Source: Halococcus saccharolyticus DSM 5350
GTDB lineage: Archaea > Halobacteriota > Halobacteria > Halobacteriales > Halococcaceae
Length of the DNA: 64,000 bases
Assembly: GCF_000336915.1 (NCBI RefSeq)
Contig: NZ_AOMD01000028.1
Location: forward strand, 1 to 64,000
Direction of reading: 5' to 3'
This document shows, piece after piece, positions 2,307 to 46,002 of the stretch. The notes below the pieces were generated by a model. It was not told the origin of the DNA, made no database searches, and saw nothing but the letters and a program-made list of their open reading frames with translations. Positions within the stretch are counted from its first letter, which is position 1; every line of letters starts with the position of its first letter. Made by a program: the position numbers and the translations under genes.

Positions 2307-2438
2307 CTACCGCCGGCCGCGTCTGCTGCCTTCGCGGAACGCGGTCGCGGTGCGCCGGAGCAACAGATAGGCCGCGAAGACGACGAGGAGAATCATCGCG
2401 AGAAGCCCGAGGAGCACCGGGTCGATGCCGAAGACCAT
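2307..2438 (-). CDS. 43-aa single-span membrane protein
   Basis: A short gene in the gap after threonine aldolase: ATG at 2438, TAG at 2307. The product starts MVFGIDPVLLG, has one hydrophobic helix of about 22 residues (residues 7-28) and ends in an Arg-rich tail, RRGRR, so the C-terminus is probably cytosolic by the positive-inside rule. Start, span and tail form a coherent unit, and upstream of the ATG the frame has no clear extension. The function is unknown; it resembles the many uncharacterised haloarchaeal one-helix proteins. Confidence 0.6.
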   Translation of the reverse strand: MVFGIDPVLLGLLAMILLVVFAAYLLLRRTATAFREGSRRGRR

Positions 2439-2493
2439 GTGTGACGATACCGTCGCCGGCCTAAAGCCGTTTCGGGGAGACGGGACGATCAGG

Positions 2494-3006
2494 CTACGTC
2501 GAGGCCCGGAACTCCTCGAAGACGGTTCCGTCTGGATCGCGGAGTCGACCGTCGAGGTCCGATCCAGCGTCGGTCACGATTTCGGCGTAGCCGGGACGGT
2601 TCCATCGCGGATCGGCGTGACTCCCCGGATTGAGGAGCGTGCATTCGCCCGTGTCGACGACTCCCGGACGATGTGAGTGCCCCGATATCACGAGGTCGGC
2701 GTGGTTCTGCCGGCCGAACAGACTCAGTCCCGTTTCGTCGCGGTCGTCGCCGTGGGTGAGCGCGATCCGGACTCCCTCGTGCTCGACGACGCGCTCGGCT
2801 GGCAGGCGGTCGCGGACCGCCGGCGTGGCGTTGTTGCCGTGGACGGCGACGAACTCCCGACACTCGGCTGCGAACGCATCGAGGACGGCCTCGGTGGTGA
2901 GATCGCCGGCGTGAACCACGAGATCGGCCGCACGGACGGTTTCGAGGAGTCGGTCGTTGAGGCAGTGGCCGTCCGTTCCGTGGGTATCGGCGAGGGCGAC
3001 GATCAC
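2494..3006 (-). CDS. YfcE/MJ0936-type metallophosphoesterase
   Basis: A 170-residue calcineurin-like phosphoesterase. From the GTG at 3006 the protein begins directly with the first beta strand, VIVALADTHG. All metal ligands are in order: D7 and H9, D35 in HAGD, N58 in GNN, H85 in THGD, H110 and H112 in GHSH. The family is a two-metal phosphodiesterase; the physiological substrate is not determined. An upstream TTG at 3045 would add 13 basic residues and abut the next gene, so the GTG is preferred. Confidence 0.85.
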   Translation of the reverse strand: MIVALADTHGTDGHCLNDRLLETVRAADLVVHAGDLTTEAVLDAFAAECREFVAVHGNNATPAVRDRLPAERVVEHEGVRIALTHGDDRDETGLSLFGRQNHADLVISGHSHRPGVVDTGECTLLNPGSHADPRWNRPGYAEIVTDAGSDLDGRLRDPDGTVFEEFRAST

Positions 3007-3045
3007 GGTCGGAGCTACGCGCCGGAGAGCAAAAATCGTCCGCAA

Positions 3046-3420
3046 TCAGAGGAATTCGCGGACTTCGGCGTACCACATGTCGTGATGGTCAAGCGCGTCG
3101 ATTCGGCGGGCGATCACGACCGCGAGGACGTGCCAGCACGCCTGGTCGGGGTCGTCGGGATCGAGGTTGTACGCCGAATCCTTGCAGGTACAGCCGCCGT
3201 CCTCGACGATGTACTCCTCGGTGTGGCCGACCACCACGGTGAAATCGCGGTACTGCTTCACGCGGCGCTCGGCGACCGCCTCGATCGCGCGCACGCCCCG
3301 GTCGCCGTGGGCGCGGATGATGCGCTCGGTCACGTCCGAGTCGAGTTCGCCTGCCTCGGCGAGCGCCGCTCGCCACTCCTCGGTCGCCGTCACGGCCGTC
3401 CGTTCGGGTGGATCGGTCAA
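3046..3420 (-). CDS. SWIM zinc-finger protein
   Basis: A 124-residue protein with a C-terminal SWIM finger, CxCx(n)CxH: CTC near residues 77-79 and CWH near 95-97, separated by an acidic loop. The preceding VKQYRDFTVVVGHTEEYIV strands match the usual beta hairpin before SWIM fingers. SWIM domains bind DNA or protein; no enzymatic domain is present. The start is uncertain: TTG at 3420 gives the full length, while a GTG at 3393 would remove nine residues. Its 3' end abuts the upstream region of the phosphoesterase, so the two may be co-transcribed. Confidence 0.75.
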   Translation of the reverse strand: MTDPPERTAVTATEEWRAALAEAGELDSDVTERIIRAHGDRGVRAIEAVAERRVKQYRDFTVVVGHTEEYIVEDGGCTCKDSAYNLDPDDPDQACWHVLAVVIARRIDALDHHDMWYAEVREFL

Positions 3421-3465
3421 AACACGTTCGATGGTCGGTGACCATGCGCGCCCCGTTCGAGCGGT

Positions 3466-3637
3466 TCAGAGACGCGCCTCGGGCGGGACGAACGGCCCGA
3501 CCGAGACCGTGTAGCGAGCCACCGAGGCGGTCCGGAGGATGTAGCTGAGGAGGATCGCGAGTGGGACGAACACGACCGCTGGCCGGGGTTACGACGACGA
3601 GCGCCGCGAGCAATCGGAGCCGGTATCGCTCGGCCAC
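3466..3637 (-). pseudogene. frameshifted small membrane protein (56 codons if repaired)
   Basis: From a GTG at 3637 the minus strand reads [16 protein letters not shown], a basic start and half of a membrane helix. The frame then becomes unlike protein. One base over, it continues coherently as [17 protein letters not shown], then VARYTVSVGPFVPPEARL and a TGA at 3466. The break falls in a run of four identical bases (3585-3588); removing one restores a continuous 56-residue one- to two-helix protein. Either the gene is inactivated or there is a homopolymer sequencing error. The family is not recognised. Confidence 0.5.
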
Positions 3638-3832
3638 TGCCCCACCGACAGAGGTTCGGGTCTTAGTCACTCCGGAAGTCTTCGCCTGCACCAAGGACGT
3701 GCGAAGGCTCACTGTAGCTGGCTGGAGTGCTGTTACGGTCGGGTTCGGCCACGATCGTACCTACAGACGCGCCCACTGCCAGTCGTGGCCACGGAGCGGG
3801 TCGCTTTTCGCGTTCGGCGACCCAGCCCCGCC

Positions 3833-4951
3833 ATGCAGGTTTCGGAGGGGGGGCTCTCCTTTCGCGTCCCCGAACAGCCCGAAGCGGGGATCGGCGACGA
3901 CGTCTTCTTCAATTCCGATCAGGAGTTGAACCGGGATCTCACCGTCGCAGTGCTTCGAACGGTGCGTGACCGCGAGGACCGCGAATCGTATCTCGACGCG
4001 ACCGCCGCGACCGGCGTACGGGGCGTGCGTGCGGCGAACGAGGGCTACGACGCGACGTTGTGTGATGTCGATTCCGACGCGACAGACCTCTGTCGAGCGA
4101 ATTTGGAGCGGAACGATCTCGACGGCAGGGTGAAAACCCGGAACGCGAACGCGCTCATGCACGAGGAGCGCTTCGACGTGGTCGATCTCGATCCGTTCGG
4201 CACGCCGATCCCCTTCGCCGACGCCGCCTTCCGGAGCGCGCGCCACCTCGTCTGCGTCACCGCGACCGACACCGCGCCGCTATGTGGCGCACACAAAGAA
4301 AGCGGTATCCGGTCGTACAGTGCCGTCCCGCAGAACACCGAGTACCACCCCGAGATGGGGCTCCGGATCTTGCTGGGGGCTCTCGTCCGGACCGCCGCAC
4401 GATACGACGTCGCCGCCATCCCCGTGCTGAGTCACGCCACGAGTCACTACGTCCGGACGTATCTCGACCTCTCCCGGCGGGCGAGCGACGCGAACGACGC
4501 GCTCGAATCGGTGGGACACGTCCACCACTGCTTTTCGTGTCTCCACCGAGAGTCCGAGACAGGTCTCACCGCTCGCCCGCCGGACGAATGTCCGGTCTGT
4601 GGGGCGAATATCCGAACCGCGGGCCCGCTCTGGCTCGACCAGCCCCACGACCGCGGGTTCGTCGGGGACGTCCGCGAACGACTCACCGACGAGTTGAGCA
4701 CCGCCGAGCGTGCCCGCGACCTGCTCGACACGCTCGACGGCGAACTCGATAGTCCGACGCACTACGACCAGCACCGGCTCTGCCGGGAGTGGGGCCGCTC
4801 CGCGAGCGCGATGGACGAGTTCCTCGATCGGCTCCGTGGAGACGGATTCACAGCCTCGCGGACCCACTACGGCGGAACGACGTTCAAAACCGACGCGACC
4901 GTGGCGGAGATCGAGACCGCCACCGAGCCGGACGGCGATCGAGACCGCTGA
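3833..4951 (+). CDS. trm1: tRNA (guanine(26)-N2)-dimethyltransferase
   Basis: 372-residue Trm1, which uses SAM to form N2,N2-dimethylguanosine at tRNA position 26. The start [10 protein letters not shown] is typical for the archaeal enzyme. The Rossmann core includes [10 protein letters not shown] near residue 55 (SAM binding) and the catalytic DLDPFGTP motif at 118-125. A zinc ribbon (C233, C236, C253, C256) lies in the C-terminal RNA-binding part. The ATG at 3833 is chosen over upstream in-frame starts because it fits the family N-terminus. Confidence 0.95.
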
Positions 4952-5025
4952 GGGAGTCGATCCATGCGGCCGTCCGAGCGCGACGGAGGGTGAACTACTT
5001 GTCGTCGGGGGCGGAACCCGGCGGC

Positions 5026-5862
5026 GTGGGTGTTCGCAAGCGCGCGCGTCGGCGGTTCGAAGGGATGGAGCCGGTAGCGCGGACGGTCGTCGCGGTGGCT
5101 CGCGAGGAACAGATCACGCTGCTGGCGGCGAGCCTCGCGTACTATCTGTTTCTCGCCTTGGTCCCGCTCGTGCTCTTCGCCGTGATCGGTCTCTCGCTGT
5201 TCGGGAACGGTCTCCTCTCGCAAGCGAGCACGGCGGCGTCGGGGACGGTGCTCCCGAACGGGACGTCGGTACCGCGACAGCTCCTGACCCAGACCAGCGG
5301 CCGGGTCCGGGCAGCGGCGCTAGGGGCCGTCATTCTCGGGTGGAGCGGGCTCCGGATGTTCGGTGCGCTCGACGGGGCGTTCGCAGCGGTTTACGACGAG
5401 CGCGAGGCAGTCTCGCTTACGGGAAAACTGATCGACGCGACGCTCGTGCTCGTGACAGTGACGACCGCAGCCACGGCACTCGCCGGCATCAGCCTCGCGT
5501 TCGCGGTCGTCGTCGAGAACGGCTCCGTGCTGCGATTGCTGAGTCCGCTCCTCCTGTTCGTCACACTGGCCGTCGCCTTCCTCCCGATGTTCTACGTCCT
5601 GCCCGAGGTCGACGGCGTCTCGATCCGCGAGATCCTTCCCGGGACGCTGTTCGCCGCGCTCGCGTGGACGGTATCGGGCGTGGTCGTCCGGCTGTACGCC
5701 ACCGCGTCGAGCAGCGTCGCCCTCTACGGCGTCGTTGGCGGCCTGTTACTCGTGCTCACGTGGCTCTACGTCGGGGGCCTCGCGTTGCTGGTAGGGGCGG
5801 CGCTCAACGCGACTCTCGCCGGGCGGGTCGATCCCGATACCGAATGGCTGCCGGCGCGATAG
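5026..5862 (+). CDS. YihY/BrkB-family (UPF0761) inner membrane protein
   Basis: About 278 residues with six predicted membrane helices. The family signature is visible: EEQITLLAASLAYY before the first helix, the GLRMFGALDGAFAAVYD segment, and FYVLPEVDGVSIREILPG in the middle. Members were once misnamed ribonuclease BN; the molecular role is unknown. GTG at 5026 is chosen because it gives an Arg-rich pre-helix tail; an ATG at 5065 is an alternative. The next gene is a clear paralogue, so the pair arose by tandem duplication. Confidence 0.8.
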   Translation: MGVRKRARRRFEGMEPVARTVVAVAREEQITLLAASLAYYLFLALVPLVLFAVIGLSLFGNGLLSQASTAASGTVLPNGTSVPRQLLTQTSGRVRAAALGAVILGWSGLRMFGALDGAFAAVYDEREAVSLTGKLIDATLVLVTVTTAATALAGISLAFAVVVENGSVLRLLSPLLLFVTLAVAFLPMFYVLPEVDGVSIREILPGTLFAALAWTVSGVVVRLYATASSSVALYGVVGGLLLVLTWLYVGGLALLVGAALNATLAGRVDPDTEWLPAR

Positions 5863-5925
5863 TGCCGGGCCGCGAGCGGCGTCACGGCCCCGACGCGGGG
5901 CTCGCGGGACGTGGGTTCCCGCCGA

Positions 5926-5934
5926 TTATATATA
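5926..5934 (+). promoter_or_regulatory. TATA box of the second YihY gene
   Basis: TTATATATA centred 27 bp upstream of the GTG at 5957, predicting a leaderless transcript. It shows that the second paralogue has its own promoter rather than depending only on the first gene. Confidence 0.6.
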
Positions 5935-5956
5935 CGCCTCGGTCGAAAGCGCGGTC

Positions 5957-6817
5957 GTGAGTACCAGCGCGCGCGCGACCTCCTTCGGCCGAGCGTTCGT
6001 CGGGGAGGTTCAGGAAAAAGAGATCACGTTCATCGCGGCGAGTATCGCGTACTACGCGTTCGTCTCGCTGATTCCCCTGCTGTTGCTCCTGCTCGTCACG
6101 GTGTCGGTCGTCGTCGACCAGTCGACGGCGAACGAGATCGTGAGCGGGGCAACGAGCTCGCTGCCGGCGAGCGCACAGGAACTCGTCGAGGGTGCAGTCA
6201 GCAACCAGGATGGAGCGGGGGGCGCAACGATCGTCAGTCTCGTTGCACTACTCTGGAGCGCGCTCAAGCTGTTTCGTGGGCTCGACACCGCGTTCTCGCG
6301 GGTATACGGCCGTGAATCCGGTGGGATCGCCGCACAGGTCAAAAACGGCGTCGTCACGCTGGCCGCGATCATCCTCGGCGCGATCGTCGCGGTCGGGATC
6401 GGCGTCGCGGTCTCGTTCTGGCCGGTCGAGGTCACGTTCGCCGGCATCTCCGCGGCGGCGATCGTCGGGACGCTCGCAACGCTGCTCGCGCTCACGATCG
6501 TCCTGCTGCCGCTCTATTACTTCCTCCCTGGAAGCGATGTGACGATCCGCGAGGCGGTACCGGGGGCAGTGCTGGCTGCCGTCGGACTCACCGTCCTCCA
6601 GGTCGTGTTCCGAATCTACGCGGCACGGGCCAGTGCGTTCGAGGCCTACGGGGTTCTCGGTGGGGTGTTGTTGCTGGTGACGGTGCTGTATTTCGCCGGG
6701 ATGGTGCTCCTGCTCGGCGTGTTGTTGAACGCCCTCCTCGCCGGGCGGGTCGCCGGCCGCGAGAGGACGAACGGCGGCGGGCTTGCAGCACGGCTGCGAT
6801 CGGGAGGCCGAGCATGA
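5957..6817 (+). CDS. YihY/BrkB-family membrane protein, second paralogue
   Basis: 286 residues, six predicted helices, colinear with the preceding gene: KEITFIAASIAYYAF corresponds to EEQITLLAASLAYYL, LKLFRGLDTAFSRVYG to LRMFGALDGAFAAVYD, and YYFLPGSDVTIREAVPG to the matching central motif. The GTG start at 5957 is supported by a TATA box 27 bp upstream. The stop overlaps the ATG of the next gene (ATGA), so the two are translationally coupled. Function is unknown beyond membership of the BrkB-type family. Confidence 0.85.
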   Translation: MSTSARATSFGRAFVGEVQEKEITFIAASIAYYAFVSLIPLLLLLLVTVSVVVDQSTANEIVSGATSSLPASAQELVEGAVSNQDGAGGATIVSLVALLWSALKLFRGLDTAFSRVYGRESGGIAAQVKNGVVTLAAIILGAIVAVGIGVAVSFWPVEVTFAGISAAAIVGTLATLLALTIVLLPLYYFLPGSDVTIREAVPGAVLAAVGLTVLQVVFRIYAARASAFEAYGVLGGVLLLVTVLYFAGMVLLLGVLLNALLAGRVAGRERTNGGGLAARLRSGGRA

Positions 6818-7312: not shown

Positions 7313-8683
7313 TCAGAACGTTTCGAGGTAGCGGTCTTTCTCCCACTCGCTGACCGACACCCGGTAGTCGGTGACTTCCTCGCGTTTCGCCGCGACGAAC
7401 GTCTCGGTGACGTGGTCGCCGAGCGCGTCGAGCACGACCTCGTCGGCTTCGAGCGCGTCGATCGACTCGGCCAGCGTCGTCGGCAGGGTGTCGATCCCGT
7501 ACTCCGCGCGGCGTTCTTCGTCGAACTCGTAGATGTTTTCTCGTACTGGGTCGGGAGCCTCGAGTTCGCGCTCGATGCCGTCGATCCCGGCGGCGATCAT
7601 CACTGCGAGAGCGAGATACGGGTTACAGGAGGGATCGGGCGAGCGGAGCTCGACCCGGGAGGCCGCCGGCGTACGCGCGGCGGGTTTGCGAACCAGCGCC
7701 GAGCGGTTGCGGTCCGACCACGCGACGTAGACGGGAGCCTCGTAGCCCGGGACCAGACGCTTGTAGCTGTTGATCGTCGGGTTGCAGATCGCGGTGACGG
7801 CGGGCGCGTGATCGAGAATGCCCGCGACGAACTGTTTGGCGGTCTCGCTCAGATCGAACTCGTCGGCCCCGTCGTGGAAGGCGTTCTCGCCGTCGTCGAA
7901 CAGCGAGAGGTGAGTGTGCATCCCCGACCCGTTGACGCGCGCGATCGGTTTGGGCATGAAGGTCGCGTGGAGGTCGTGCTGGGCCGCGATCGCCCGGACC
8001 ACCGACCGGAACGTCGCGACGTTGTCCGCGGTCGTGAGCGCGTCGTCGTACTCGAAGTTGATCTCGTGTTGACCCTGGGCGACCTCGTGGTGGGAGGCCT
8101 CGATGTCGAAGCCCATGTCCTCCAGCCCGTAGATGATGTCCCGGCGGACGTCGCTCGCGAGGTCCTTCGGTGCGAGATCGAAGTAACCACCGGCGTCGTT
8201 GGTTTTCGTGGTCGCGCGACCCTCCTCGTCGTGTTCGAACAGGAAGAACTCGGGTTCGGGTGCGGCGTTGACGTCGTAGCCCATCCCTTCGGCGCGATCG
8301 AGCACACGCCGGAGCACACCCCGTGGATCGCCGTCGAACGGTTCGCCCGTCGAGGTGTTCATCACGTCGCAGATCAGCCGCGCACTCGCGGTGCCGTCGT
8401 CGCGGTCGCGCCACGGCAAGATCGCGAACGTCGTCGGGTCGGGCTTGAGCCGCATGTCCGATTCCTGAATGCGGACGAACCCCTCGATCGAGGAGCCGTC
8501 GAAGTAGATCCCTTCGGTGAACGCCTTCTCGGCCTGTGAGGCGGGGATGGAGACGTTTTTCACCGTGCCGAGGATGTCGGTGAACTGGAGCCGGAGGAAG
8601 TCGACGTTGTGCTCGTCGATCCGTTCGAGAACGCGGCGGGCGTCGGTCGAGAGGTCGCCATCAGTCGGAGTTTCGTTTGTCAT
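7313..8683 (-). CDS. glnA: glutamine synthetase, type I
   Basis: 456 residues; makes glutamine from glutamate, ammonium and ATP. Family signatures are all present: DGSSIEGF (62-69), EPEFFLFE (143-150), the ATP-binding NGSGMHTH (251-258), and the C-terminal [20 protein letters not shown] block. Length is normal for GSI. The gene lies divergent from an Lrp-type regulator, an arrangement known from other haloarchaea and consistent with control by nitrogen or amino-acid supply. Confidence 0.97.
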
Positions 8684-8701
8684 ACTTCGTGCCTACTCGG
8701 T

Positions 8702-8784
8702 GGGGGACCCCCGAATACAAAAACACTACCCTTCGTCGCAAATATTGAGTTTTGGGCTGGAAATGGATATTCGTAAAGTTTTAC
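8702..8784. promoter_or_regulatory. divergent glnA/lrp promoter region with dyads
   Basis: For glnA, TTTTTGTATT on the minus strand (8714-8723) sits about 35 bp from the ATG. Between it and the gene is a GGGGG-A-CCCCC dyad (8702-8712). For lrp, the dyad GTAAA-GT-TTTAC (8773-8784) lies about 32 bp before the ATG, overlapping the expected TATA/BRE position. That placement would suit autoregulation by Lrp. The dyads are visible; their role as Lrp operators is inferred. Confidence 0.4.
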
Positions 8785-8809
8785 TCCCCCGAATCGGTAC
8801 CGGAGTGTG

Positions 8810-9268
8810 ATGACGTACGAAAATCTCGATACGGAACTCGTGAACGCGCTGTTGGGCGATGGTCGTGCCAGCCTTCGGAGTCTCGCCGACGACCTCGACG
8901 TCTCGGTGACGACGGTCTCGAATCACCTCGCGGACCTCGAAGACGAGGGCGTCATCCGAGGCTACTCGCCCACGGTCGATTACAACGCGCTCGGCTACGA
9001 CGTCACCGCCGTGATCCAGCTCAAAGTCGACGGCAGCGCGCTACCCGACATCACCGACCGTCTCCGTGAGCACGACCAGATGATCTCGGTGTACGAAGTC
9101 ACCGGCGATCACGACGTCGTCGCGATCGGGAAGTTCGAAGACACCGACGACATGAACGACGCGATCAAGACGCTGCTCGCCGACGCCGACATCCGCGAGT
9201 CGAACACCAACGTCGTGCTCAATTCGGTGAGTGAGCACGAGCAGTTCGAACTCGACATCGAGGGTTAG
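8810..9268 (+). CDS. lrp: Lrp/AsnC-family transcriptional regulator
   Basis: 152 residues. The N-terminal winged helix-turn-helix (about residues 4-55; [26 protein letters not shown]) is followed by an AsnC ligand-binding domain with the [16 protein letters not shown] strand. Lrp proteins form dimers or octamers that sense amino acids. Position next to divergent glnA suggests it regulates glutamine synthesis. A GTG directly precedes the chosen ATG and is an equally possible start. The 3' end overlaps the convergent exchanger gene by 4 bp. Confidence 0.93.
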
Positions 9269-10194
9269 AGAGCGTCGAGCACCCAGCGCACCGCGACGGC
9301 AACCAGCACCGCCACCCCCTCGATGCGCGTCAGCCGCCGACCGGACCGGAGCGTGACGGCGGCGGCCACCGAGAGCGCGAACAGCCACGCCACGTCCCCC
9401 AGTGCCGCCGGGTCGACGTCCAGCGGCTGAATCGTGGCCGCCGCCCCGAGCACCCCGAGCAGGTTGAAGACGTTCGACCCGAGGACGTTGCCGACCGCGA
9501 CCGTCGCCAGCCCGCGCCGGGCAGCGACGACCGAGGCCGCGATCTCGGGCGCTGAGGTGCCGACGGCGACGACGGTCAGCCCGATGAGCCACTCCGACGC
9601 GCCGAGCAGCCGCGCGAGGTCGCTCGCCGAACTCACTAGCATCGTTGCCCCGCCGACGATGACCCCGAGACCGACGAGCGCCAACAGGGGCGAGAACCAG
9701 CGGGCGGGGGCCGTCGGCACGTCGGCGTTGGCGCTCGTTTCCGAGCGCAGGAGAACGGCGAGGTAGGCGAGAAACACCACGAGAAGCAAGAGTGCTTCGG
9801 GCCGCGAGACGCGGAGGTCGAACAGGAACAGACCGACCAGCGCCGTTGCGGCGGTCATGACTGGGGCGTCGCGGCGAACGAGCGCCCGCGGGACGCGAAC
9901 ACTCGCGCCCGCGACCAGCGCGACGCCGCCCAGAATGGCGAGGTTGAAGAGATTCGACCCGACGACGTTCGCCGCCGCGACGTCCGAGCTCCCGACGAGC
10001 GCCGCGTCGATAGTGACGGCGAACTCCGGCGCGGAGGTACCGAGCGACACCACCACCAGCCCGACCACGAGATCCGACAGCCCGACTCGTCGGGCGAGCC
10101 GCGCAGCGTGCTCGACGAACAACGTCGCTCCGAGCCACAGCCCCACGACGGCGACGGCAATCAGTCCCACGTCGACGACGACCGACCCGACCAT
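9265..10194 (-). CDS. CaCA-family sodium/calcium exchanger-like protein
   Basis: 309 residues, about 10 helices. Two inverted alpha repeats contain the ion-binding motifs: SLGTSAPEF plus VVGSNLFNL (about 50-85) and AVGTSAPEI plus VLGSNVFNL (about 210-245). The acidic GTSAPE residues form the cation site in this superfamily. Which ion is exchanged (Ca2+/Na+, Ca2+/H+ or K+) cannot be told. The ATG at 10194 is chosen; upstream sequence in frame is Arg-rich and not membrane-like. Confidence 0.9.
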
Positions 10195-37927: not shown

Positions 37928-38737
37928 ATGGCCGAGACGACGGAGACGGGCGGGACCACCGCAGACGAGCCCGCCGGCACCGCGCCGCTCGACGACAGCG
38001 AGATGCCGCTCGCCGATCACATCGAGGAGATGGTCAAACGCCTCGGGATCGTGATCGTGGCGATGGGCGTCGTGAGCGGCATCGTCTTTCCGTTTGCCGA
38101 CGAGCTCATCAATTTTATCTGGTACGCCTTCCTCCCTGGTTCACCCACGGCCTGCCCGGTCGCGGCTGACCAGGCGAGTGCAGCCTGTCCGTACGTGTAC
38201 GACCCGCTCGCGCTCGTCCTCGCCCGGCTGAAGGCGGCATCGCTCGCGGGCTTCGTGGTCGCGCTGCCACTTTTCGTATATCAAACCTATCGGTTCATGC
38301 GCCCCGGTCTCTACCACAAAGAGCGTCGGTACTATCTCGCGGCAGTCCCCACGAGTCTCGTTTTTGCCATGATCGGGGTCGCGTTCGCCTTCTTCCTCGT
38401 CCTCCCGGTGATGTTCAACTACTTCCTTGGCTACTCGAAGCCCGTCGCAGAGATCGCGTTCGGGCTCGGTGATACGTTCGGGCTGATGACGCTGCTGATG
38501 GGGTTTTTCGCGCTGGTCTTCCAGATCCCGCTGTTCGTGATGCTCGCGATCATGATGGGGATCACGACGCGGGCGTGGCTCACGAGCCGGCGGCTCTACT
38601 TCTGGGGCGGGTTTGCTGGAGTTGCGTTCCTGTTCAGCCCCGACCCGACCGGAATGGCCCCCATCATCGTCGCCGCGACGATGATCGGGCTGTTCGAGGG
38701 CACGCTCCTTCTGCTCAGATGGACCGGACGCGGCTGA
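37928..38737 (+). CDS. tatCo: TatCo, single-domain Tat translocase subunit
   Basis: 269 residues, six helices. The start of the conserved domain, EMPLADHIEEMVKRL, corresponds to the TatC L-x-HL-x-ELR region. FMRPGLYHKERRYYLAA near 123 is the conserved FxxPGL loop, with glutamate E in HKER. It sits divergent from tatCt with 116 bp between, the standard haloarchaeal pairing. ATG at 37928 is preferred over upstream in-frame codons. Confidence 0.95.
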   Translation: MAETTETGGTTADEPAGTAPLDDSEMPLADHIEEMVKRLGIVIVAMGVVSGIVFPFADELINFIWYAFLPGSPTACPVAADQASAACPYVYDPLALVLARLKAASLAGFVVALPLFVYQTYRFMRPGLYHKERRYYLAAVPTSLVFAMIGVAFAFFLVLPVMFNYFLGYSKPVAEIAFGLGDTFGLMTLLMGFFALVFQIPLFVMLAIMMGITTRAWLTSRRLYFWGGFAGVAFLFSPDPTGMAPIIVAATMIGLFEGTLLLLRWTGRG

Positions 38738-38781
38738 TCGATCGCTGAGGGCGCAGCCGAGTGAAAGGGACCAGGACGGTT

Positions 38782-39900
38782 TCAGAGCCGATTGAGGATC
38801 ACGTCGGCATCGTGGGCGAGCGAGAGTTCGCGCGAGCGGCCGCGGCCTTCGACACTGGTGTAGCTGGCATCGACGAGGTCCAACTGATCGAGCTTGTTGA
38901 CCAGTTCGGAGTAGCGGGTGTAGCCGAGGTCGGTTTCGTCGTGAAACGCCTCGTACACCGTGCCGGCGCGCTCGCCGTCGTGATCGGCGATCACCCGCAG
39001 GAGCTCGCGTTCGGGATCGGTGAGTTCGCCCAGCCGCCGCGAGAGGTGGACGTGTTTCGCCTTCTCGTAGGCCGACTCGACGTCCTCGATTTCGACGGTG
39101 CGACTTCCACGGGCCTCGGCGTGGAGCCCCGCACGCCGGAGGAGATCGATCCCCACCCGGAGGTCGCCGGTCTCGGCGGTCAGCTCGGCCACCAGATCGA
39201 GCGGTCGCGGGCCGAGTACGTCGTTACGGAAGCCGCGATCGACGCGCTCGCGGAGGATGTCAACGATCTCGCTCTCGTCGTACGCCGGGAAGTACACCTC
39301 CTCGGGGCGGAACACCGACTGGACGCGGTTGTCGAGATCGGCGATCACGTCGAGATCGAGATCGGAGGAGACCAGAATGACGCCGACCTTCGCGCCCGCG
39401 TGGGTCTCGTGGGCGCGCAAGAGCGAGTAGAGAGTTTCGGAGGCCTCGCCCTCGTAGAAGAGGTAGTTCACGTCGTCGAGACACACGACTAGAACCTCGC
39501 CCTCGTCGGTGAGGTGATCGGTGATCTGCTCGAACAGGCTCTTGAACGAGATGCCGCTTGCGGGCGGTTCGTACTCAAAGATCGCCTCGAATAGCCGCGA
39601 GAACACCGCATACCGCGTCGAATCGACCTGGCAGTTCACTCGCACCGCTCGGACCCCACGCCGTGCGTCGAGTTCGCCGAACAGCTTCTGGACGGCGGTG
39701 GTTTTGCCGGTGCCGGGCGGCCCGCGAACCATCGCGTTCAGCGGGCGCGAGCCCCGGACGGCGGGCCGGAGCGCGTACTGGAGCCCGTCGAGCTGGTCGT
39801 CGCGGTGGTGGAACGTCTCCGGGAGGTAATCCACCTCGAAGACCCCCTCGTCCCGGAAGACCGACTCGTCCCACGAGAGCATGTCGCCGTCGTCGGCCAT
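38782..39900 (-). CDS. orc1: Orc1/Cdc6 replication initiator
   Basis: 372 residues, AAA+ ATPase with a C-terminal winged helix. Walker A GPPGTGKT (60-67), Walker B VVCLDD (138-143), sensor 1 ILVSSD and sensor 2 TGDLRVGIDLLRRAG are visible. The winged helix (about 290-372) binds origin repeats. ATG at 39900 chosen because the upstream frame begins another short Met segment with no family match. An inverted-repeat pair lies 140-200 bp upstream (see 40041-40098). Confidence 0.93.
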   Translation of the reverse strand: MADDGDMLSWDESVFRDEGVFEVDYLPETFHHRDDQLDGLQYALRPAVRGSRPLNAMVRGPPGTGKTTAVQKLFGELDARRGVRAVRVNCQVDSTRYAVFSRLFEAIFEYEPPASGISFKSLFEQITDHLTDEGEVLVVCLDDVNYLFYEGEASETLYSLLRAHETHAGAKVGVILVSSDLDLDVIADLDNRVQSVFRPEEVYFPAYDESEIVDILRERVDRGFRNDVLGPRPLDLVAELTAETGDLRVGIDLLRRAGLHAEARGSRTVEIEDVESAYEKAKHVHLSRRLGELTDPERELLRVIADHDGERAGTVYEAFHDETDLGYTRYSELVNKLDQLDLVDASYTSVEGRGRSRELSLAHDADVILNRL

Positions 39901-40040
39901 CACTTTCACCTCGCTCCCCGCCGGCTTCAAGCCTTCGGCGACCCGTGCCGCCAAGGTTTTGTTGCATCACGGGGTTGCGCGCCACAAATTGGATCATGAC
40001 CACTAGCATACGGCGGGATGCTATAGTTCCTCCGCGACTA

Positions 40041-40098
40041 TTTCACCAGACTGGGCAAGAATGATTTTTGATCAGGAATTCACTATTTAGTGGTGAAA
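40041..40098. other. AT-rich inverted-repeat element upstream of orc1 (origin-like, tentative)
   Basis: TTTCACCA (40041-40048) and its exact complement TGGTGAAA (40091-40098) flank an AT-rich 42-bp spacer. Flanking bases extend the resemblance to about 11 of 12 positions. Inverted origin-recognition boxes around an AT-rich unwinding element next to orc1 are the usual archaeal origin layout. However, the G-string and canonical ORB core are absent, so this is only a candidate. Confidence 0.22.
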
Positions 40099-40116
40099 CT
40101 ACAGGATCACAGATAG

Positions 40117-40623
40117 TCAATCAGCGCTGCGATATAGTTTTATTGATGATACAAAACCTATTATTATGAAAAGCATTCCGACGCCAGCAAACAGGAGTGG
40201 CGCATTCGTGGTCTGGTTTTTCAGAAATGCGTTATCTGGTTCGTCAGGATCGATATAGGCAGTAACCGTGTCACCGGTTTCGTAACCATCTATTACGGAT
40301 CGGGCCTCCGACCTTGTGTCGTAATCTGGAGACGTCTCTGCTGGAAATACGTTAGTTCCCGTATACGATGTTCCCTCGTAGTTATAGGTGAACCGAACCG
40401 TCGGTTTGTGATCAGCACCGAGACTACTGCCGGGTGAACTGGCTTCGACAACACCTGTTTCGGTGATCTCAGCGTTAACCTCAACCGAGTTTGCAACCGT
40501 GTCGGACTGTTGAATGTAATCGTACGCACCAAACCCGGTAGCCGCGAGGCCAATGACCAGCAGTATTACAGCACCACGAAGTGTATCCAGTCCGTCAATA
40601 GGCAAATTAAATCCATCAGACAT
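40117..40623 (-). CDS. DUF3592-type membrane protein
   Basis: 168 residues from ATG at 40623. One helix near 15-35 (GAVILLVIGLAATGFGAYDYI) and one near the C-terminus (LFAGVGMLFIIIGFVSSI) enclose an external beta domain (VEVNAEITETGVVEASS ... VRFTYNYEGTSYTGTN ... YIDPDEPDNAFL), the DUF3592 layout. Function unknown. Base composition is clearly more AT-rich than in the flanking housekeeping genes, suggesting recent acquisition. Confidence 0.75.
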   Translation of the reverse strand: MSDGFNLPIDGLDTLRGAVILLVIGLAATGFGAYDYIQQSDTVANSVEVNAEITETGVVEASSPGSSLGADHKPTVRFTYNYEGTSYTGTNVFPAETSPDYDTRSEARSVIDGYETGDTVTAYIDPDEPDNAFLKNQTTNAPLLFAGVGMLFIIIGFVSSIKLYRSAD

Positions 40624-40763
40624 TTTTGGCACCGCTTTTGTAAGTGAAATTGAAACTATGCGCGCATCGAGATCGTGACCGTTGGACTGTATTGAGAACA
40701 GGCATACTAAAAGAATAGGAACTGTATCCACAAACACCGTATGGGTGGTTTTCTCCAATCATG

Positions 40764-41108
40764 TCAAATGATCTCGGGAGCAAATGGATAGCTCCAAACG
40801 TCACCAGTCGTCGCCTTGTAGGTCGCATACAGAGAAAAAAGCAAATCAGCCACGACCAGGCCAAATATCATGAATCCTGCAATCACGCTCACAAGGTCCG
40901 ACCCGACGACGAAGAAGACTACGAGAAGCATGAAGAGTACACCAAGAAAGAACAACTGCCAATTCAACGCGCATCGCGCGTTCGCCTTTGAAAAATCGGC
41001 CGTCGATAGGATATACATGGGAATGGCTGCGAATACACCGAAGACCAACCCAAGGAGGTGAACAATGACCCCCACTATCGTTCGTTCTCGTCTATTCTGA
41101 TGGTTCAT
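40764..41108 (-). CDS. DUF4870-like membrane protein
   Basis: 114 residues, three to four helices. HLLGLVFGVFAAIPMYILS then ANARCALNWQLFFLGVLF match the DUF4870 pattern (HL-GL ... A--A-N-Q). Family members are small membrane proteins of unknown role. AT-rich, like its neighbour; the two may share a transcript, with 140 bp between them. Confidence 0.7.
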   Translation of the reverse strand: MNHQNRRERTIVGVIVHLLGLVFGVFAAIPMYILSTADFSKANARCALNWQLFFLGVLFMLLVVFFVVGSDLVSVIAGFMIFGLVVADLLFSLYATYKATTGDVWSYPFAPEII

Positions 41109-41165
41109 AATAGCTGAGTTAATTCAGTTCTGGAAGGCAAATAAGATTTTCTAAGACGCAACGAG

Positions 41166-41858
41166 TCAGAGGGTTCCCCCGACGTCTTCCTGCACGCAGA
41201 GGTACCGACCAGCAAACTCCCATCCGTTCTGTTCATAAGCGCTATCAGGCGCTACGTCAAGACAAACTTCGACTGAGGCACTGACCTCAAGCCCGGCTGG
41301 GTTGAGCGATGGCGCGAACCGGAAGCAGCCATCGACTCGCAGCGGAATGGCTTTAAGTTTCCCACGGATGTCTGCACAAATTTCAGCGTTAGAGTAACTA
41401 ATTCCGGCACCGAGAAGCGTTAGGCAGGTGTTATCGAAGCAAATCCCACCGGAGATAGAAACCTCGGTGAAGCCGAAAGTCGCATCGATCGTCAGGACGA
41501 TGTCGGTCCCGCCGATGACTGGAATCCTGTACGGAATCGTTGCGACATAGAACCTTGCGCTTGGGCTCGCAATAGCTTGTGGAGTGGGAGCCGGATCAGT
41601 GGATGGTGAGCCGGAGGTTACGTCGGTTTCGGTGTAGTTGACCGCAGAGTTTGTGGAAGTGATGTCGGTATCAAACTCTGACGGGTCGACAAGCGGTTCT
41701 TGCGACTCCTCAGCCGCTGCATTGCCAGTCATTCCCGTTGCTCCGAACGCTCCTACGCCTCCTGCCGCGCCGAGCGATTTGACGAAGCGTCGTCGATTGA
41801 CCGAGTTTGTGCCCTCGTTCGCATCACCGAATTCGTCCGTCGGGGGTTGCTTGGACAT
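41166..41858 (-). CDS. Tat-exported protein with six cysteines, unknown
   Basis: 230 residues. A twin-Arg signal (NRRRFVKSLGAAGGVGAFG, about 21-39) ends near AAAEE, without a lipobox, so the protein is probably released. A Thr/Ser/Pro-rich stretch (about 55-95) precedes a beta-rich domain. Six cysteines (CFDNTC, then four single ones) are unusual for haloarchaeal secreted proteins and suggest disulfides or metal binding. The family is not recognised. AT-rich composition. Confidence 0.7.
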   Translation of the reverse strand: MSKQPPTDEFGDANEGTNSVNRRRFVKSLGAAGGVGAFGATGMTGNAAAEESQEPLVDPSEFDTDITSTNSAVNYTETDVTSGSPSTDPAPTPQAIASPSARFYVATIPYRIPVIGGTDIVLTIDATFGFTEVSISGGICFDNTCLTLLGAGISYSNAEICADIRGKLKAIPLRVDGCFRFAPSLNPAGLEVSASVEVCLDVAPDSAYEQNGWEFAGRYLCVQEDVGGTL

Positions 41859-41918
41859 CGCATTTCAGACCATACCCGAGACTATTTTTACATTAATGCA
41901 TGAGCAAACAACAATCCG

Positions 41919-42044
41919 ATGAGCACCTATCCAGAGGATTGGCAACTACCAACTCAGTGGGCGAATGTTCACCCAGTGGACACCTGCCTAGCAGGTAAGG
42001 TGAAACCGACAACACCTGTAGCCTGCCGCAATGTCACTCATTGA
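41919..42044 (+). CDS. 41-aa ORF overlapping the next gene
   Basis: ATG at 41919, TGA at 42042-42044. The product MSTYPEDWQLPTQWANVHP then VDTCLAGKVKPTTPVACRNVTH has two cysteines and three histidines. Its last 14 bases overlap the start of the following gene in another frame, so the two would be translationally coupled. Too short for statistics, but the composition is protein-like. Unknown function. Confidence 0.45.
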   Translation: MSTYPEDWQLPTQWANVHPVDTCLAGKVKPTTPVACRNVTH

Positions 42045-42882
42045 TCGCCTTCGCCAGCCCGAATACACCGGCGAAAACCGTTGTACCCCCTGTACAACGG
42101 TCAACATCGCTATCGCTGCCGGGGCAAGCGTACTTGCCGCCGTTGCCTCGACCGTCCTCGGGGCCGGGGTATTCACGCTCTCGCTCGGTACCATCTACCT
42201 CCGTGGGTATCTCGTCCCGGGTACGCCCACGCTCACGAAACGCTATTTCCCTGAACGCGTCCTCGGGAGGTTCGAGAAAGACTCTACGACACCAGTGGCC
42301 GACGAGACCGTTGAAATCGACCCCGAGGGGGTACTCCTCGACGCCCACGCGGTCGAACCCTGCGGAGAGAGCACCGACCTTTGTCTCACTGCCGACTTTC
42401 AGCAAGCGTGGCGCGAAAGCATCCACACGGCCCGCACACACGATCTTGGCGAGGATCATCTCGCGGACATGCTTGATATCTCGACCACGGACGACCAGAT
42501 CACGGTCGATCAACACGGCGAGGCGTTCGTTGTCCGCACCGATGATGCCGTCGTCGGGCAATGGAGTTCACAGGCTGCGGCCGTCGCCGACGTCGCCGCC
42601 GCGACCGAACTCAACGAACGCCTTTCCCGCTGGCAGAACCTCGCCCCTGCCGAGATCGCGCGCGTGCTGATGAGCCTCCGTATCTTCATCGAACAGTGTC
42701 CCGACTGCGACGGTCCCGTGCAGGTGGAACAGGACGCCATCGAGTCGTGTTGTCGGTCGTATGATGTGATTATCTCAGCCTGTCAGGACTGTGACTGTCG
42801 CCTGTTCGAAATGGAATGGGACGATACCGACGCGGACGACGGACAAGAACAACCGAATCAGTCCACTCAAGCAACCGCATAA
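42031..42882 (+). CDS. zinc-ribbon membrane protein, unknown
   Basis: 283 residues. The N-terminal ENRCTPCTTVN (CxxC) is followed by two hydrophobic segments (about 25-60), then a soluble domain of about 150 residues. A C-terminal cysteine-rich module follows: CPDCDG, SCC and CQDCDCR (about 229-262), likely zinc-binding. The acidic tail is typical of halophiles. No enzymatic motif seen. Overlaps a 41-codon ORF upstream; convergent with the regulator, 12 bp away. Confidence 0.7.
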   Translation: MSLIDRLRQPEYTGENRCTPCTTVNIAIAAGASVLAAVASTVLGAGVFTLSLGTIYLRGYLVPGTPTLTKRYFPERVLGRFEKDSTTPVADETVEIDPEGVLLDAHAVEPCGESTDLCLTADFQQAWRESIHTARTHDLGEDHLADMLDISTTDDQITVDQHGEAFVVRTDDAVVGQWSSQAAAVADVAAATELNERLSRWQNLAPAEIARVLMSLRIFIEQCPDCDGPVQVEQDAIESCCRSYDVIISACQDCDCRLFEMEWDDTDADDGQEQPNQSTQATA

Positions 42883-42894
42883 ACAGGCAGAGGA

Positions 42895-43722
42895 CTAATT
42901 TGCTGGTTCAGTATCGGGTGCTCCGAGCGAAGTGTCCGTCTCGTGCGGCTGTATCGATTGATCTCTGTAGGCCTCATACACTCCCTCACCCCACTTGATG
43001 GCCGTCGCACTGGTTGATTCGACCACCGCTTGTATTCGACCGACTTCATTGTAGCCCACAAGCGCGAGTTGCTCGTCCGAAACGAATAGTCCATAGGACA
43101 AACTCCCTTCGTACACCCAAATATCGACATGAGTAGGTGGATCTATCTCAGCCACATCAGCGCTATCGCTGCCATACTGCTGGCGGAGTGTATCAAATGC
43201 ATCCGATGAGAGAACGTATTCGTACTCAGGAACACTTCCATCGTCCGTATCCACGCGACAAGAGAGTTCGATCGATAACGAGGAGACGACTGGCAGGAAT
43301 CCTCGGACACGATCAGTTCCTCCAAAGCTGTTGAACAACCGATTTATCAGGGACATCGGCTGACCCGAATCAGGAGTTATCACGAGCGCGTCAGATAATT
43401 GACTGATATCGATCTTCGGAGGCGTGTTTACTGCTTCGAGAAACGGTGCCAGACGCTTGATCGTATCGGCGGCCTCACTCGCCGACACGAATTCCTCACG
43501 AAGAAGACTTCCGACCGTGGTTGTCGTGTATCCAGAACAAGTATCTTCGATCCAACCCCGTTCTTCCAGTACAGAGAGGTTACGCTGGACGGTGGAACGT
43601 GGGCTATTCAATCTCTCCATCAAATCACGAACATCCATCTGTGCGTCATCGAGGACATCGAGTATACGAAGCCGTTGCGGTGAGTTGCAGAGGCATTCAA
43701 TTGCATCACAACGTTCGGTCAT
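42895..43722 (-). CDS. FilR1-type winged-helix transcriptional regulator
   Basis: 275 residues. N-terminal winged HTH (about 12-65; SPQRLRILDVLDDAQMDVRDLMERLNSPRSTVQRNLSVLEERGWI), then a long domain ending PTHVDIWVYEG / YGLFVSDEQLALVGYNE, which matches the haloarchaeal DUF1724/FilR1 middle domain. Family members regulate surface, motility and other genes. It lies within the accessory segment and may control its neighbours. The upstream region is AT-rich. Confidence 0.8.
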   Translation of the reverse strand: MTERCDAIECLCNSPQRLRILDVLDDAQMDVRDLMERLNSPRSTVQRNLSVLEERGWIEDTCSGYTTTTVGSLLREEFVSASEAADTIKRLAPFLEAVNTPPKIDISQLSDALVITPDSGQPMSLINRLFNSFGGTDRVRGFLPVVSSLSIELSCRVDTDDGSVPEYEYVLSSDAFDTLRQQYGSDSADVAEIDPPTHVDIWVYEGSLSYGLFVSDEQLALVGYNEVGRIQAVVESTSATAIKWGEGVYEAYRDQSIQPHETDTSLGAPDTEPAN

Positions 43723-43900
43723 GTATATTAATAATAACTATATCTGCCTTAAAATTACGTTGTGGGAGTTAATCACACTATTTCAACGTGTCTTTCTGTT
43801 ACAGGACAGGTGGGATAAGCGTAAATCTCGAATTGTTGACTGTAATTAGCAGGTGAGTACCTGGATTCGAACAAGAACCATGAGTGGAGGCCGATGAAGA
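43723..43900. other. AT-rich intergenic segment
   Basis: Contains the promoter region of the regulator (TATATTAATAATAACTATAT near 43725-43745) and no coding ORF of note. At 43858-43876 the minus strand has a GTTCGAATCC string like a tRNA T-loop, but no matching stem or tRNA body. It may mark the edge of the accessory segment; nothing else is supported. Confidence 0.4.
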
Positions 43901-45892
43901 TCACTCGAACTTCTCCAGCAAGCGTTCGTAGAACGACTCTACATCGCCCGCGGCCTCGCCGTCTCGGGTGGCGAGCTTCTCGACGATGAGTTCGGGCGTC
44001 GATCGCGCGAGCACGCCCTTCTTCGGCGAGCGCTCGACCACGAGTTCGCCCCCCTCCAGCCCGACCGCCTCGATGCCGTCGACAGGAATATCGAAGCCGG
44101 CGGCCTCGCGGATCTCGCCGGCGAGATGCGAGACGAACACCGCCGTGGTCTCGCCGCCCGCGAGTTCTTCGAGGATGCCAGCGATGATTCGGGCCGACGC
44201 ACCTGGTTCGGTGATGCTTTCGAGCTCGTCGACCAGCACGAGCCGCCGGCCCGTTCCGGAGACGAGGCCGGCGAACTCCCGGAGTGTGGACTCGAACGCG
44301 CCCGCGTCGAGAGTGCCCTGGCTCTTCTCCTGATAGTGCAGCGAGTCGTAGCGCTCGACGCGGGCTCGCTCGGCGGGGACGGGCAGCCCCATGTGCGCGA
44401 GCACCGTAACGAGCGCGAGGAGATCGAGGGTCGAGGTCTTCCCGCCACTGTTGACCCCCGAGAGCAGCGTCGGGCCCGCGACTCCGTAGTCGATCGGCTC
44501 GACCGCGTCGAAGGAGACGTCGAGCAGTGGCGAGCGGCCGGCCTCGATCGCGACCCCGCTGCCGCCGAGTTCGGGCAGCGTGCAGTCGAACTCGCGAGCG
44601 AAGCGCGCGACGGCGAGTTCGACGTCGCGTTCGAGCGCCGCGTGGACGAGTTCCTCACAGTCCTCCCGCAAGTCGGCGAGATCCGCCGCGAGGTCGCGTT
44701 TCAGCCGCGTCGCTCGACGGTCGCGCGCGGCGGTGAGCTCCTCGCGGAGCCGGCTCACGACCGCCTCGTCGTGCTCCACGGGAAAGGTGGGCTCCTCGGG
44801 GAACGCCTGCGCGGCGATTTCTGCCTCGCCAGCGTCGAGCGCAAGCGCGTCGACGAGGTGTTCGCGCGCGGCCTCGATCGCGGCGGCGTGTTCGTCTTCG
44901 AGCTCGCGCGAGAGCAGCGAGTCCACCCCCGCGCCCTGCTCGACGAGCGAGAGCAGGTCCGATCCTTCGATGGTGACGTCGCGCTCCTCGATCGCCTCAC
45001 GGAGTCGGTCGTTCGCCACGCTTTCACCCGTCGAGACCGCCGCGTCGAGATCGTCGACCGCCTGGCGCAGCCGCGCGAGTTCGTCGTCGGGTACCACGCT
45101 TCCCTCGTCGTCGAGCCGGGAAAGCGCGTCGTCGAGCACCGCGAGATCGCAGGGGGTATCGAGGTCGGCGGCCCGTGCGACCGCGGCGGCCGCCCGGAGC
45201 CGATCGCGGTTTTCGGCGAAAAAGGCGAGCAGCCGCTCGGGAACCACCATTGCGGGTTTTTCGAGCGCGTCGGGTTCGACTCGGACGTCACCCGCGATGT
45301 CGATCCCGGCGAAGGACTCGTCGAGTACAATAACTGTCGAGTAGCCCGTCGCGAGATCCGCGAGACCGCGGGCGTCCTCGACGATCTCGACCGAGATTTC
45401 GGGGTAGGCGGCCTCGGCCGCGGCGTGGCGCTCGGCGTCGGCGGTGGCGAGACACCGCTCGCGGACCCGAATTCCAGTGGGCGATTCGAGCGGTTCGACC
45501 CCGGAGAGTGCGTCGAGCACCTCGGGATCGGGATCGTGTTCCATCGCCTGCGTGGCCCACTCGCGGACCTCCTCGATCCGAGACGTGCTGGCCGCGGGAT
45601 AGAGGGTTTCGAGCCGCTTGGCGGCGTAGTCGGTGACCGCGCGGTCCTGGAGGAGGGCAAGCGCGTCGCGGTAGATCTCGCGGGCGCGATCGGTCGCGAG
45701 GAACTCCCCGGCATCGTCGTGTTCGGCCTTGATTGCCGCCCGTGCGATGGTCGCGGCACGCCCCGGCGTGACGCCGGGAGCCTCGGCGAGCGCCGCCACG
45801 TCGCCCGCCGCGAGCGCGCGTTCGGGCTCGTCGAGCGCCGCGAGGCGTTCGGCGGTTTTCGGGCCGACACCGGGGATGGATTCGAACTCCAT
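43901..45892 (-). CDS. MutS-like ATPase with N-terminal helix-hairpin-helix
   Basis: 663 residues. The N-terminus (MEFESIPGVGPKTAERLAAL) is a helix-hairpin-helix followed by another (EAPGVTPGRAATIARA). The middle is helical and acidic. The C-terminal MutS ATPase has Walker A GVNSGGKTS (about 480) and Walker B LVLVDELESI, with TTAVFVSHLAGEI after it. There is no Smr nuclease or mismatch-recognition domain, so this is the archaeal MutS-like/MutS5 type of uncertain function, perhaps in recombination. Confidence 0.85.
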   Translation of the reverse strand: MEFESIPGVGPKTAERLAALDEPERALAAGDVAALAEAPGVTPGRAATIARAAIKAEHDDAGEFLATDRAREIYRDALALLQDRAVTDYAAKRLETLYPAASTSRIEEVREWATQAMEHDPDPEVLDALSGVEPLESPTGIRVRERCLATADAERHAAAEAAYPEISVEIVEDARGLADLATGYSTVIVLDESFAGIDIAGDVRVEPDALEKPAMVVPERLLAFFAENRDRLRAAAAVARAADLDTPCDLAVLDDALSRLDDEGSVVPDDELARLRQAVDDLDAAVSTGESVANDRLREAIEERDVTIEGSDLLSLVEQGAGVDSLLSRELEDEHAAAIEAAREHLVDALALDAGEAEIAAQAFPEEPTFPVEHDEAVVSRLREELTAARDRRATRLKRDLAADLADLREDCEELVHAALERDVELAVARFAREFDCTLPELGGSGVAIEAGRSPLLDVSFDAVEPIDYGVAGPTLLSGVNSGGKTSTLDLLALVTVLAHMGLPVPAERARVERYDSLHYQEKSQGTLDAGAFESTLREFAGLVSGTGRRLVLVDELESITEPGASARIIAGILEELAGGETTAVFVSHLAGEIREAAGFDIPVDGIEAVGLEGGELVVERSPKKGVLARSTPELIVEKLATRDGEAAGDVESFYERLLEKFE

Positions 45893-46002
45893 CGCCTGCG
45901 TCAAGCCCCGCCGGGGAGAAAAACCATCCGGGGAGCGATCGGTACGCAGCCGGTCGCCGCCGAACGCAACGCGCTTTTGCCCCACGATCCCGAATCGGAA
46001 CC

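What the first reader, a model, noticed from the sequence alone, without database searches (positions are those of the whole stretch)
39960..43900. AT-richer accessory segment next to orc1
Between orc1 and the mutS-like gene the composition falls visibly. The genes are of different character: DUF3592 and DUF4870-like membrane proteins, a Tat-exported Cys-containing protein, a 41-aa ORF coupled to a zinc-ribbon membrane protein, and a FilR1-type regulator. Three membrane proteins, one secreted protein and one regulator could form a surface or defence module.
Basis: partly seen in the sequence, partly recalled or inferred. Interest (0 to 1): 0.5.

Follow-up and report, generated by a model that had tools for sequence, protein, structure and literature searches.

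The report
Swappable halocin-type locus beside orc1
In this salt-loving archaeon a variable DNA site next to a replication gene appears to carry a halocin-like weapon locus: a fixed regulator, switch DNA and export signal that stay put while the exported protein and its membrane partners are exchanged between relatives, although no killing activity has been shown.

Summary
The AT-rich segment is real (GC 0.523 against 0.663 outside) and is a variable insertion between a mutS-like gene and an orc gene that adjoin in many relatives. The 41-aa ORF is not a gene: it lies in an array of imperfect palindromes (TGGGCAnnTGCCCA) at exact 19-bp spacing between the divergent Tat-protein gene and the membrane zinc-ribbon gene (here p283). 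The same array occurs at the equivalent spot in two more genomes of the genus. In one of them a second, 7-unit array sits directly upstream of a gene that scores above cut-off for the halocin C8 domain (TIGR04449). A constant shell (FilR1-type regulator, array, p283, Tat leader) is shared; the mature exported protein and downstream genes differ, with a DNA breakpoint at the Tat signal. The window's cargo is a rare Cys-bearing, probably beta-rich Tat family, each of whose seven members has a membrane-protein gene beside it. Best reading: a modular halocin-type antagonism locus whose effector slot holds a new candidate effector with candidate immunity proteins. Activity, FilR1 binding and immunity are inferred, not shown. 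An anti-phage role has no support.

The parts
39955..43900 (.). variable insertion between the orc-type gene and the mutS-like gene
   Evidence: GC minimum of the window; in 10 of 20 relatives fetched the two genes lie 54-484 bp apart, in 6 the interval is 1.9-8.8 kb
42895..43722 (-). FilR1-type transcription regulator, part of the constant shell
   Evidence: FilR1_middle 78.7 bits, HVO_A0261_N 66.5 bits; 83% and 60% identical orthologues beside p283 in G003 and G008
42031..42882 (+). p283, membrane protein with Cys motifs, divergent partner of the Tat precursor, part of the constant shell
   Evidence: 79% identical in G003 and G008; conserved Cys residues; model pLDDT 84.6 with two N-terminal hydrophobic helices
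41901..41990 (.). array of five imperfect palindromes at exact 19-bp spacing (41901, 41920, 41939, 41958, 41977), operator candidate
41995..42005 (+). GTAAGGTGAAA, promoter-like motif at the end of the array, shared with G008 and with the G003 halocin C8-like gene
41919..42044 (+).
   Evidence: stops in the equivalent frame of relatives; overlies the array
41740..41858 (-). Tat leader of the exported protein, shared with other precursors of the genus that have unrelated mature parts; DNA homology to G003 ends near 41756
41166..41858 (-). Tat-exported 230-aa precursor, mature part with 6 Cys: the variable cargo, candidate effector
   Evidence: family of seven full members, 8 of 391 class genomes with a match; low-confidence beta-rich model
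40764..41108 (-). DUF4870 membrane protein, candidate immunity or handling partner of the cargo
   Evidence: 39.2 bits, cut-off 25; beside the cargo in four of seven loci
40117..40758 (-). DUF3592 membrane protein, third gene of the cargo cassette (true start probably the ATG near 40623)
   Evidence: 43.7 bits, cut-off 25.3; start judged by eye

Best explanation
A modular halocin-type antagonism locus. The shell is a FilR1-type regulator, a 19-bp-phased operator array between two divergent promoters, the membrane protein p283 and a Tat leader. The regulator is inferred to bind the array and to control p283 and the Tat precursor; the precursor is exported by Tat and matured outside the cell. 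The part behind the leader, with the genes downstream, is an exchangeable cassette. Here it is a 6-Cys, probably beta-rich protein plus DUF4870 and DUF3592 membrane proteins, which are inferred to give self-protection or to handle the precursor. Shown by computation: the variable site, the shared shell, the array, the leader/cargo chimera, and the array before a halocin-C8-domain gene in G003. Inferred: FilR1 binding, killing activity, immunity, maturation.
For: Variable site. Precursors with halocin C8 domain TIGR04449 over cut-off in the same interval of G003 (27.4 bits, cut-off 24) and facing a p283 copy in G002 (51.4 bits). Untrained array of seven 19-bp steps directly before the G003 C8-like gene, score 47.9 against 3.0 for the next unrelated locus. 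Six of seven close p283 loci in the genus face a Tat Cys-bearing precursor. Leader scores 81-103 with genus precursors of unrelated mature part, 38-65 with cargo relatives in other genera; mature parts the reverse. Every one of seven cargo loci has a membrane-protein gene beside it. FilR1-type genes in 6 of 30 TIGR04449 loci against 0 of 19 control loci of the same total length.
Against: The window's cargo has no TIGR04449 match and G000 has none anywhere. The p283 family is widespread and mostly in other contexts; p283 is beside only 2 of 30 TIGR04449 loci. G009 has p283 without a Cys-rich precursor. DUF4870 relatives that have been characterised act in protein targeting, not immunity (PMC11628618). 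One unrelated Tat leader of the genus also scores 73. The Tat-side promoter motif of G008 and G003 is not found on that side in the window. No activity is shown.
Confidence: 0.55

Rival explanations
1. A cell-surface or envelope module: the Tat protein is a structural, adhesive or redox-active surface protein, with DUF4870/DUF3592 assisting its targeting or anchoring, and FilR1 regulating it; no antagonism.
For: DUF4870 relatives act in protein targeting (PMC11628618). The cargo lacks the halocin C8 domain and in other genera is not beside halocin genes in the loci held.
Against: The same promoter, leader and partner drive C8-like Cys-rich precursors in relatives; rare, patchy cargo (8 of 391 genomes) and swapped partners fit conflict genes better.
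Confidence: 0.27
2. A tolerant insertion site that has gathered unrelated genes; the neighbours have no joint function.
For: The interval holds quite different genes in G001, G004, G005, G007 and G009.
Against: FilR1, p283 and a Tat precursor stay together at another site in G008; cargo and DUF4870 stay together in other genera; shared phased array.
Confidence: 0.12
3. An anti-phage defence island.
For: Accessory, AT-rich, variable site.
Against: PADLOC: no match for 4 of 5 proteins, and only helix-turn-helix matches for the fifth.
Confidence: 0.03

Closest known systems
Halocin C8 (ProC8) loci, TIGR04449
   Same: Tat-exported precursor with a Cys-bearing C-terminal part; C8-domain genes occur behind the same array (G003) and facing p283 (G002); FilR1-type genes are found near some C8 loci.
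   Different: The window's mature part has no C8 domain and is about 180 aa with separate membrane-protein genes. In halocin C8 one gene makes both the peptide and the immunity protein (PMC11509114, passages). The p283 partner is not usual at C8 loci (2 of 30).
HFX_0892 (HmHapP) protease-activated precursor of Haloferax mediterranei
   Same: Secreted haloarchaeal precursor from which an active part is released (PMC12893001, abstract and passages).
   Different: There the N-terminal part is active and alpha-helical; here the cargo is probably beta-rich (low-confidence model). The two sequences were not compared.
Polymorphic toxin systems (constant trafficking part, variable effector part; recalled concept)
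   Same: Constant leader joined to different mature parts, with partner genes downstream.
   Different: The constant part is only a Tat leader plus promoter/operator DNA; no known toxin domain was recognised.
DUF4870 / HOTT family (Tic20 superfamily)
   Same: PF09685 match over cut-off.
   Different: The characterised members work in magnetosome assembly (PMC11628618, passages); here it sits beside an exported protein.

Membership tests
Halocin C8 family (TIGR04449) | C8 domain over curated cut-off in the exported protein | tested here: not met
   no TIGR04449 match for the window's Tat protein; none in G000
Halocin C8 family (TIGR04449) | Tat signal on the precursor | tested here: met
   TIGR01409 18.8 bits, cut-off 16.7
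Halocin (functional class) | inhibits other haloarchaea | not testable with these tools
   needs a bench assay
Halocin (functional class) | gene arrangement shared with recognised halocin genes | tested here: met
   same array before a TIGR04449 gene in G003 and a TIGR04449 precursor facing p283 in G002
FilR1-type regulators | FilR1 middle domain over cut-off | tested here: met
   78.7 bits, cut-off 27
FilR1-type regulators | binds the 19-bp array | not testable with these tools
   only co-occurrence: array in the three genomes with a close orthologue beside p283
DUF4870 (PF09685) | domain over cut-off | tested here: met
   39.2 bits, cut-off 25
Known anti-phage defence system | PADLOC model match beyond a generic HTH | tested here: not met

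The most novel reading that the evidence does not exclude
Halococcus-group archaea keep a polymorphic halocin system: one dedicated regulator acting on a 19-bp-phased operator array drives whatever effector cassette sits behind a fixed Tat leader, cassettes are exchanged by recombination at the leader, and the window's cassette belongs to a new beta-rich, Cys-bearing effector family with interchangeable membrane immunity proteins (DUF4870, RDD, DUF6498).
Probability: 0.4. Interest if true: 0.75.

Novelty: new variant of a known kind. Interest (0 to 1): 0.6.

Why it matters
How halocins are regulated and how producers protect themselves is little known; a search of the held library for 'halocin' with 'transcriptional regulator', 'promoter' and 'operator' found no paper. 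The array gives a concrete, testable operator for a halocin-type gene. The leader/cargo chimera offers a way to find unknown archaeal effectors by their constant shell instead of by effector sequence.

Tried and rejected
Rejected: the 41-aa ORF as a gene; p283 as a general halocin partner (2 of 30 TIGR04449 loci; most p283 loci lie elsewhere); anti-phage defence; the G006 pattern hit as an array.

Led nowhere: Foldseek of the p283 model against PDB, best E 0.8. The cargo model is too poor for a fold search (pLDDT 53), so none was made. Rfam and tRNA scans of the window were empty. The segment has no match in phage records. In plasmid records the cargo protein matches one record (Halorussus pelagicus) and FilR1 one (Halorussus aquaticus).

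Full report
OBSERVATION. The stretch between the orc-type gene (38782-39954, NF001626 686.9 bits) and the mutS-like gene (43901-45985) has GC 0.523 against 0.663 for the rest of the window. It is the minimum of all equal-length stretches; the next minimum without overlap is 0.609. The gene list is confirmed except for the 41-aa ORF.

WHERE IT IS. The window lies in contig C28 of G000. Equal contig lengths link G009 with Halococcus thailandensis (51,775 bases) and G055 with Halorussus amylolyticus (30,376 bases), and G077 with Halorussus pelagicus (303,357 bases). The genus of the window is therefore taken to be Halococcus; this is an inference.

A VARIABLE SITE. Twenty relatives had their mutS-like region fetched. 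The orc gene follows within 54-484 bp in 10 (G002, G011, G012, G014, G016, G022, G033, G044, G060, G077). The interval is 1.9-8.8 kb in 6 (G001, G003, G004, G005, G007, G009). No orc was found in the stretch fetched in 4 (G006, G008, G010, G019). In G001, G004, G005, G007 and G009 the interval holds other genes of normal GC (read by eye). Within the genus the site is empty or filled in several ways, so the segment is not syntenic across the class.

SHELL AND CARGO. In G003 DNA homology to the window runs from the mutS-like gene through FilR1, p283 and the intergenic region to window 41756, about codon 34 of the Tat gene. It stops there and resumes in orc (41756-45999 at 85%, 38701-39947 at 88.7%). 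A 40-base scan gives identity 0.50-0.72 over the start of the Tat gene and 0.33-0.47 beyond it. In G008 FilR1, p283 and a Tat precursor lie together on a contig other than that of the mutS-like gene. In G002 three p283 copies, one a 38-residue remnant, each face a Tat Cys-bearing precursor within 20 kb. Of seven p283 loci of this closer type in the genus (window, G003, G008, three in G002, G009), six face such a precursor; G009 does not. Elsewhere only Haloferax larsenii (L174, p283 38% identical) showed a clear case among the 100 loci scanned. The other rows that the filter printed there were judged by eye to be antisense frames or membrane proteins and were dropped.

CHIMERA TEST. The window's first 53 residues score 101, 81, 103 and 90 against the precursors of G003, G008, G002a and G002b, which have different mature parts, and 65 against the G003 C8-like protein. 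They score 48, 58, 65, 38, 40 and 38 against six proteins with a homologous mature part in other genera. Seven unrelated Tat leaders gave 30-73; the 73 is a protein of the same genus, so leader similarity alone is weak evidence. Mature parts give the reverse picture: 29, 42, 35, 56 and 36 against 297, 323, 160, 134, 57 and 75. The G002c precursor, left out, has a more distant leader (44).

HALOCIN LINK. The G003 interval also holds an ABC transporter protein (PF12679, 134 bits) and a Tat gene whose C-terminus matches the halocin C8 domain TIGR04449 at 27.4 bits (cut-off 24). The G002b precursor matches at 51.4 bits. TIGR04449 occurs in 43 of 391 class genomes, not in G000. FilR1-type genes lie in 6 of 30 TIGR04449 loci (3 of them from one genus) against 0 of 19 mutS loci of the same total length, 2 of 79 distant p283 loci and 1 of 19 mutS-orc loci.

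OPERATOR-LIKE ARRAY. Between the divergent Tat gene and p283 lie imperfect palindromes of consensus TGGGCAnnTGCCCA at exact 19-bp steps: 41901, 41920, 41939, 41958 and 41977 in the window, five grid positions in G003 and seven in G008. Hits with up to 4 mismatches number 4, 4 and 7, against 0.40, 0.37 and 0.71 in single-base shuffles. At G002a, b and c there are 2, 1 and 2 hits and no 19-bp step. In the whole window the motif with up to 3 mismatches is not enriched (10 found, 16 expected), but four of the ten are these sites; the information is in the phasing. A weight matrix from the 17 sites, run over all loci then held, found one untrained array: L083 from 10284 on, seven 19-bp steps ending in GTAAGGTGAAA just before the TIGR04449 gene of G003, score 47.9 against 3.0 for the next unrelated locus. 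A pattern of three phased sites (2 mismatches) hit 10 of 391 genomes: G000, G003 and G008 have runs, seven others have isolated or short repeat hits, and a reversed control pattern hit 6 genomes. The G006 hit was inspected and is not an array; the other six were not inspected, apart from fetching the G009 stretch. The arrays occur in the three genomes with a close FilR1 orthologue beside p283 (21 genomes searched), so FilR1 is the natural candidate to bind them; this is inference.

THE CARGO. A profile of the cargo (A1) matches 8 of 391 genomes at E <= 1e-6; the G003 and G233 hits cover only the leader or N-terminal part. Seven full members were compared. Each has a membrane-protein gene beside it: DUF4870 in G000, G055, G186 and G077 C2, RDD in G077 C1, DUF6498 in G088, and in G382 a membrane protein that resembles the G088 one by eye and was not scanned. 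In G055 and G186, from different families, a third downstream gene with no Pfam match is also similar by eye. By contrast DUF4870 had no hit in 80 p283 loci. The G382 and G088 members have third-position GC of 0.42-0.43 among neighbours mostly at 0.65-0.9, which suggests recent transfer. The single-sequence model is of low confidence (pLDDT 53) and beta-rich.

P283. The family is in 79 of 99 relatives, mostly in other contexts. Conserved Cys motifs and two hydrophobic helices suggest a membrane zinc protein; no solved fold matched. Its role here, self-protection or precursor handling, is open.

READING. The segment is best explained as a halocin-type locus with a constant control and export shell and an exchangeable cargo. 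What is reported for halocin C8 (Tat-exported precursor giving both the peptide and its immunity protein; PMC11509114, passages) and for the protease-activated HFX_0892 (PMC12893001, abstract and passages) makes a precursor matured outside the cell plausible. It is not filed as a halocin C8 member because the C8 domain was tested and not met. DUF4870 as an immunity protein is the weakest step, since the characterised relatives act in protein targeting (PMC11628618, passages). Literature searches for this arrangement (listings and abstracts seen) found no description in the held library; this does not cover subscription journals, and a relevant 2019 paper is not held.

Noticed in passing
L102 (G002 C68:1-20000): Three p283/Tat-precursor pairs with different Cys-bearing C-termini, transposase-like genes and an ABC transporter lie within 20 kb, like a store of halocin cassettes.
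   Followed up: partly
L105, L106, L110, L111, L113: A distant p283 paralogue repeatedly lies beside a response-regulator/kinase-like gene and within a few kb of a second orc-type gene.
   Followed up: no
window 39897-39954: The orc start codon is probably over-extended in the ORF list: homology suggests a start near the internal ATG around 39897.
   Followed up: no
L087 (G007) 2352-6176: In G007 the same interval holds one long sensor-kinase-like gene (1274-aa frame), another sign of a variable site.
   Followed up: no
L174 (Haloferax larsenii) 7995-9942: A distant p283 gene faces a Tat precursor with ten Cys in its last 90 residues, so the pairing is not confined to the window's genus.
   Followed up: no
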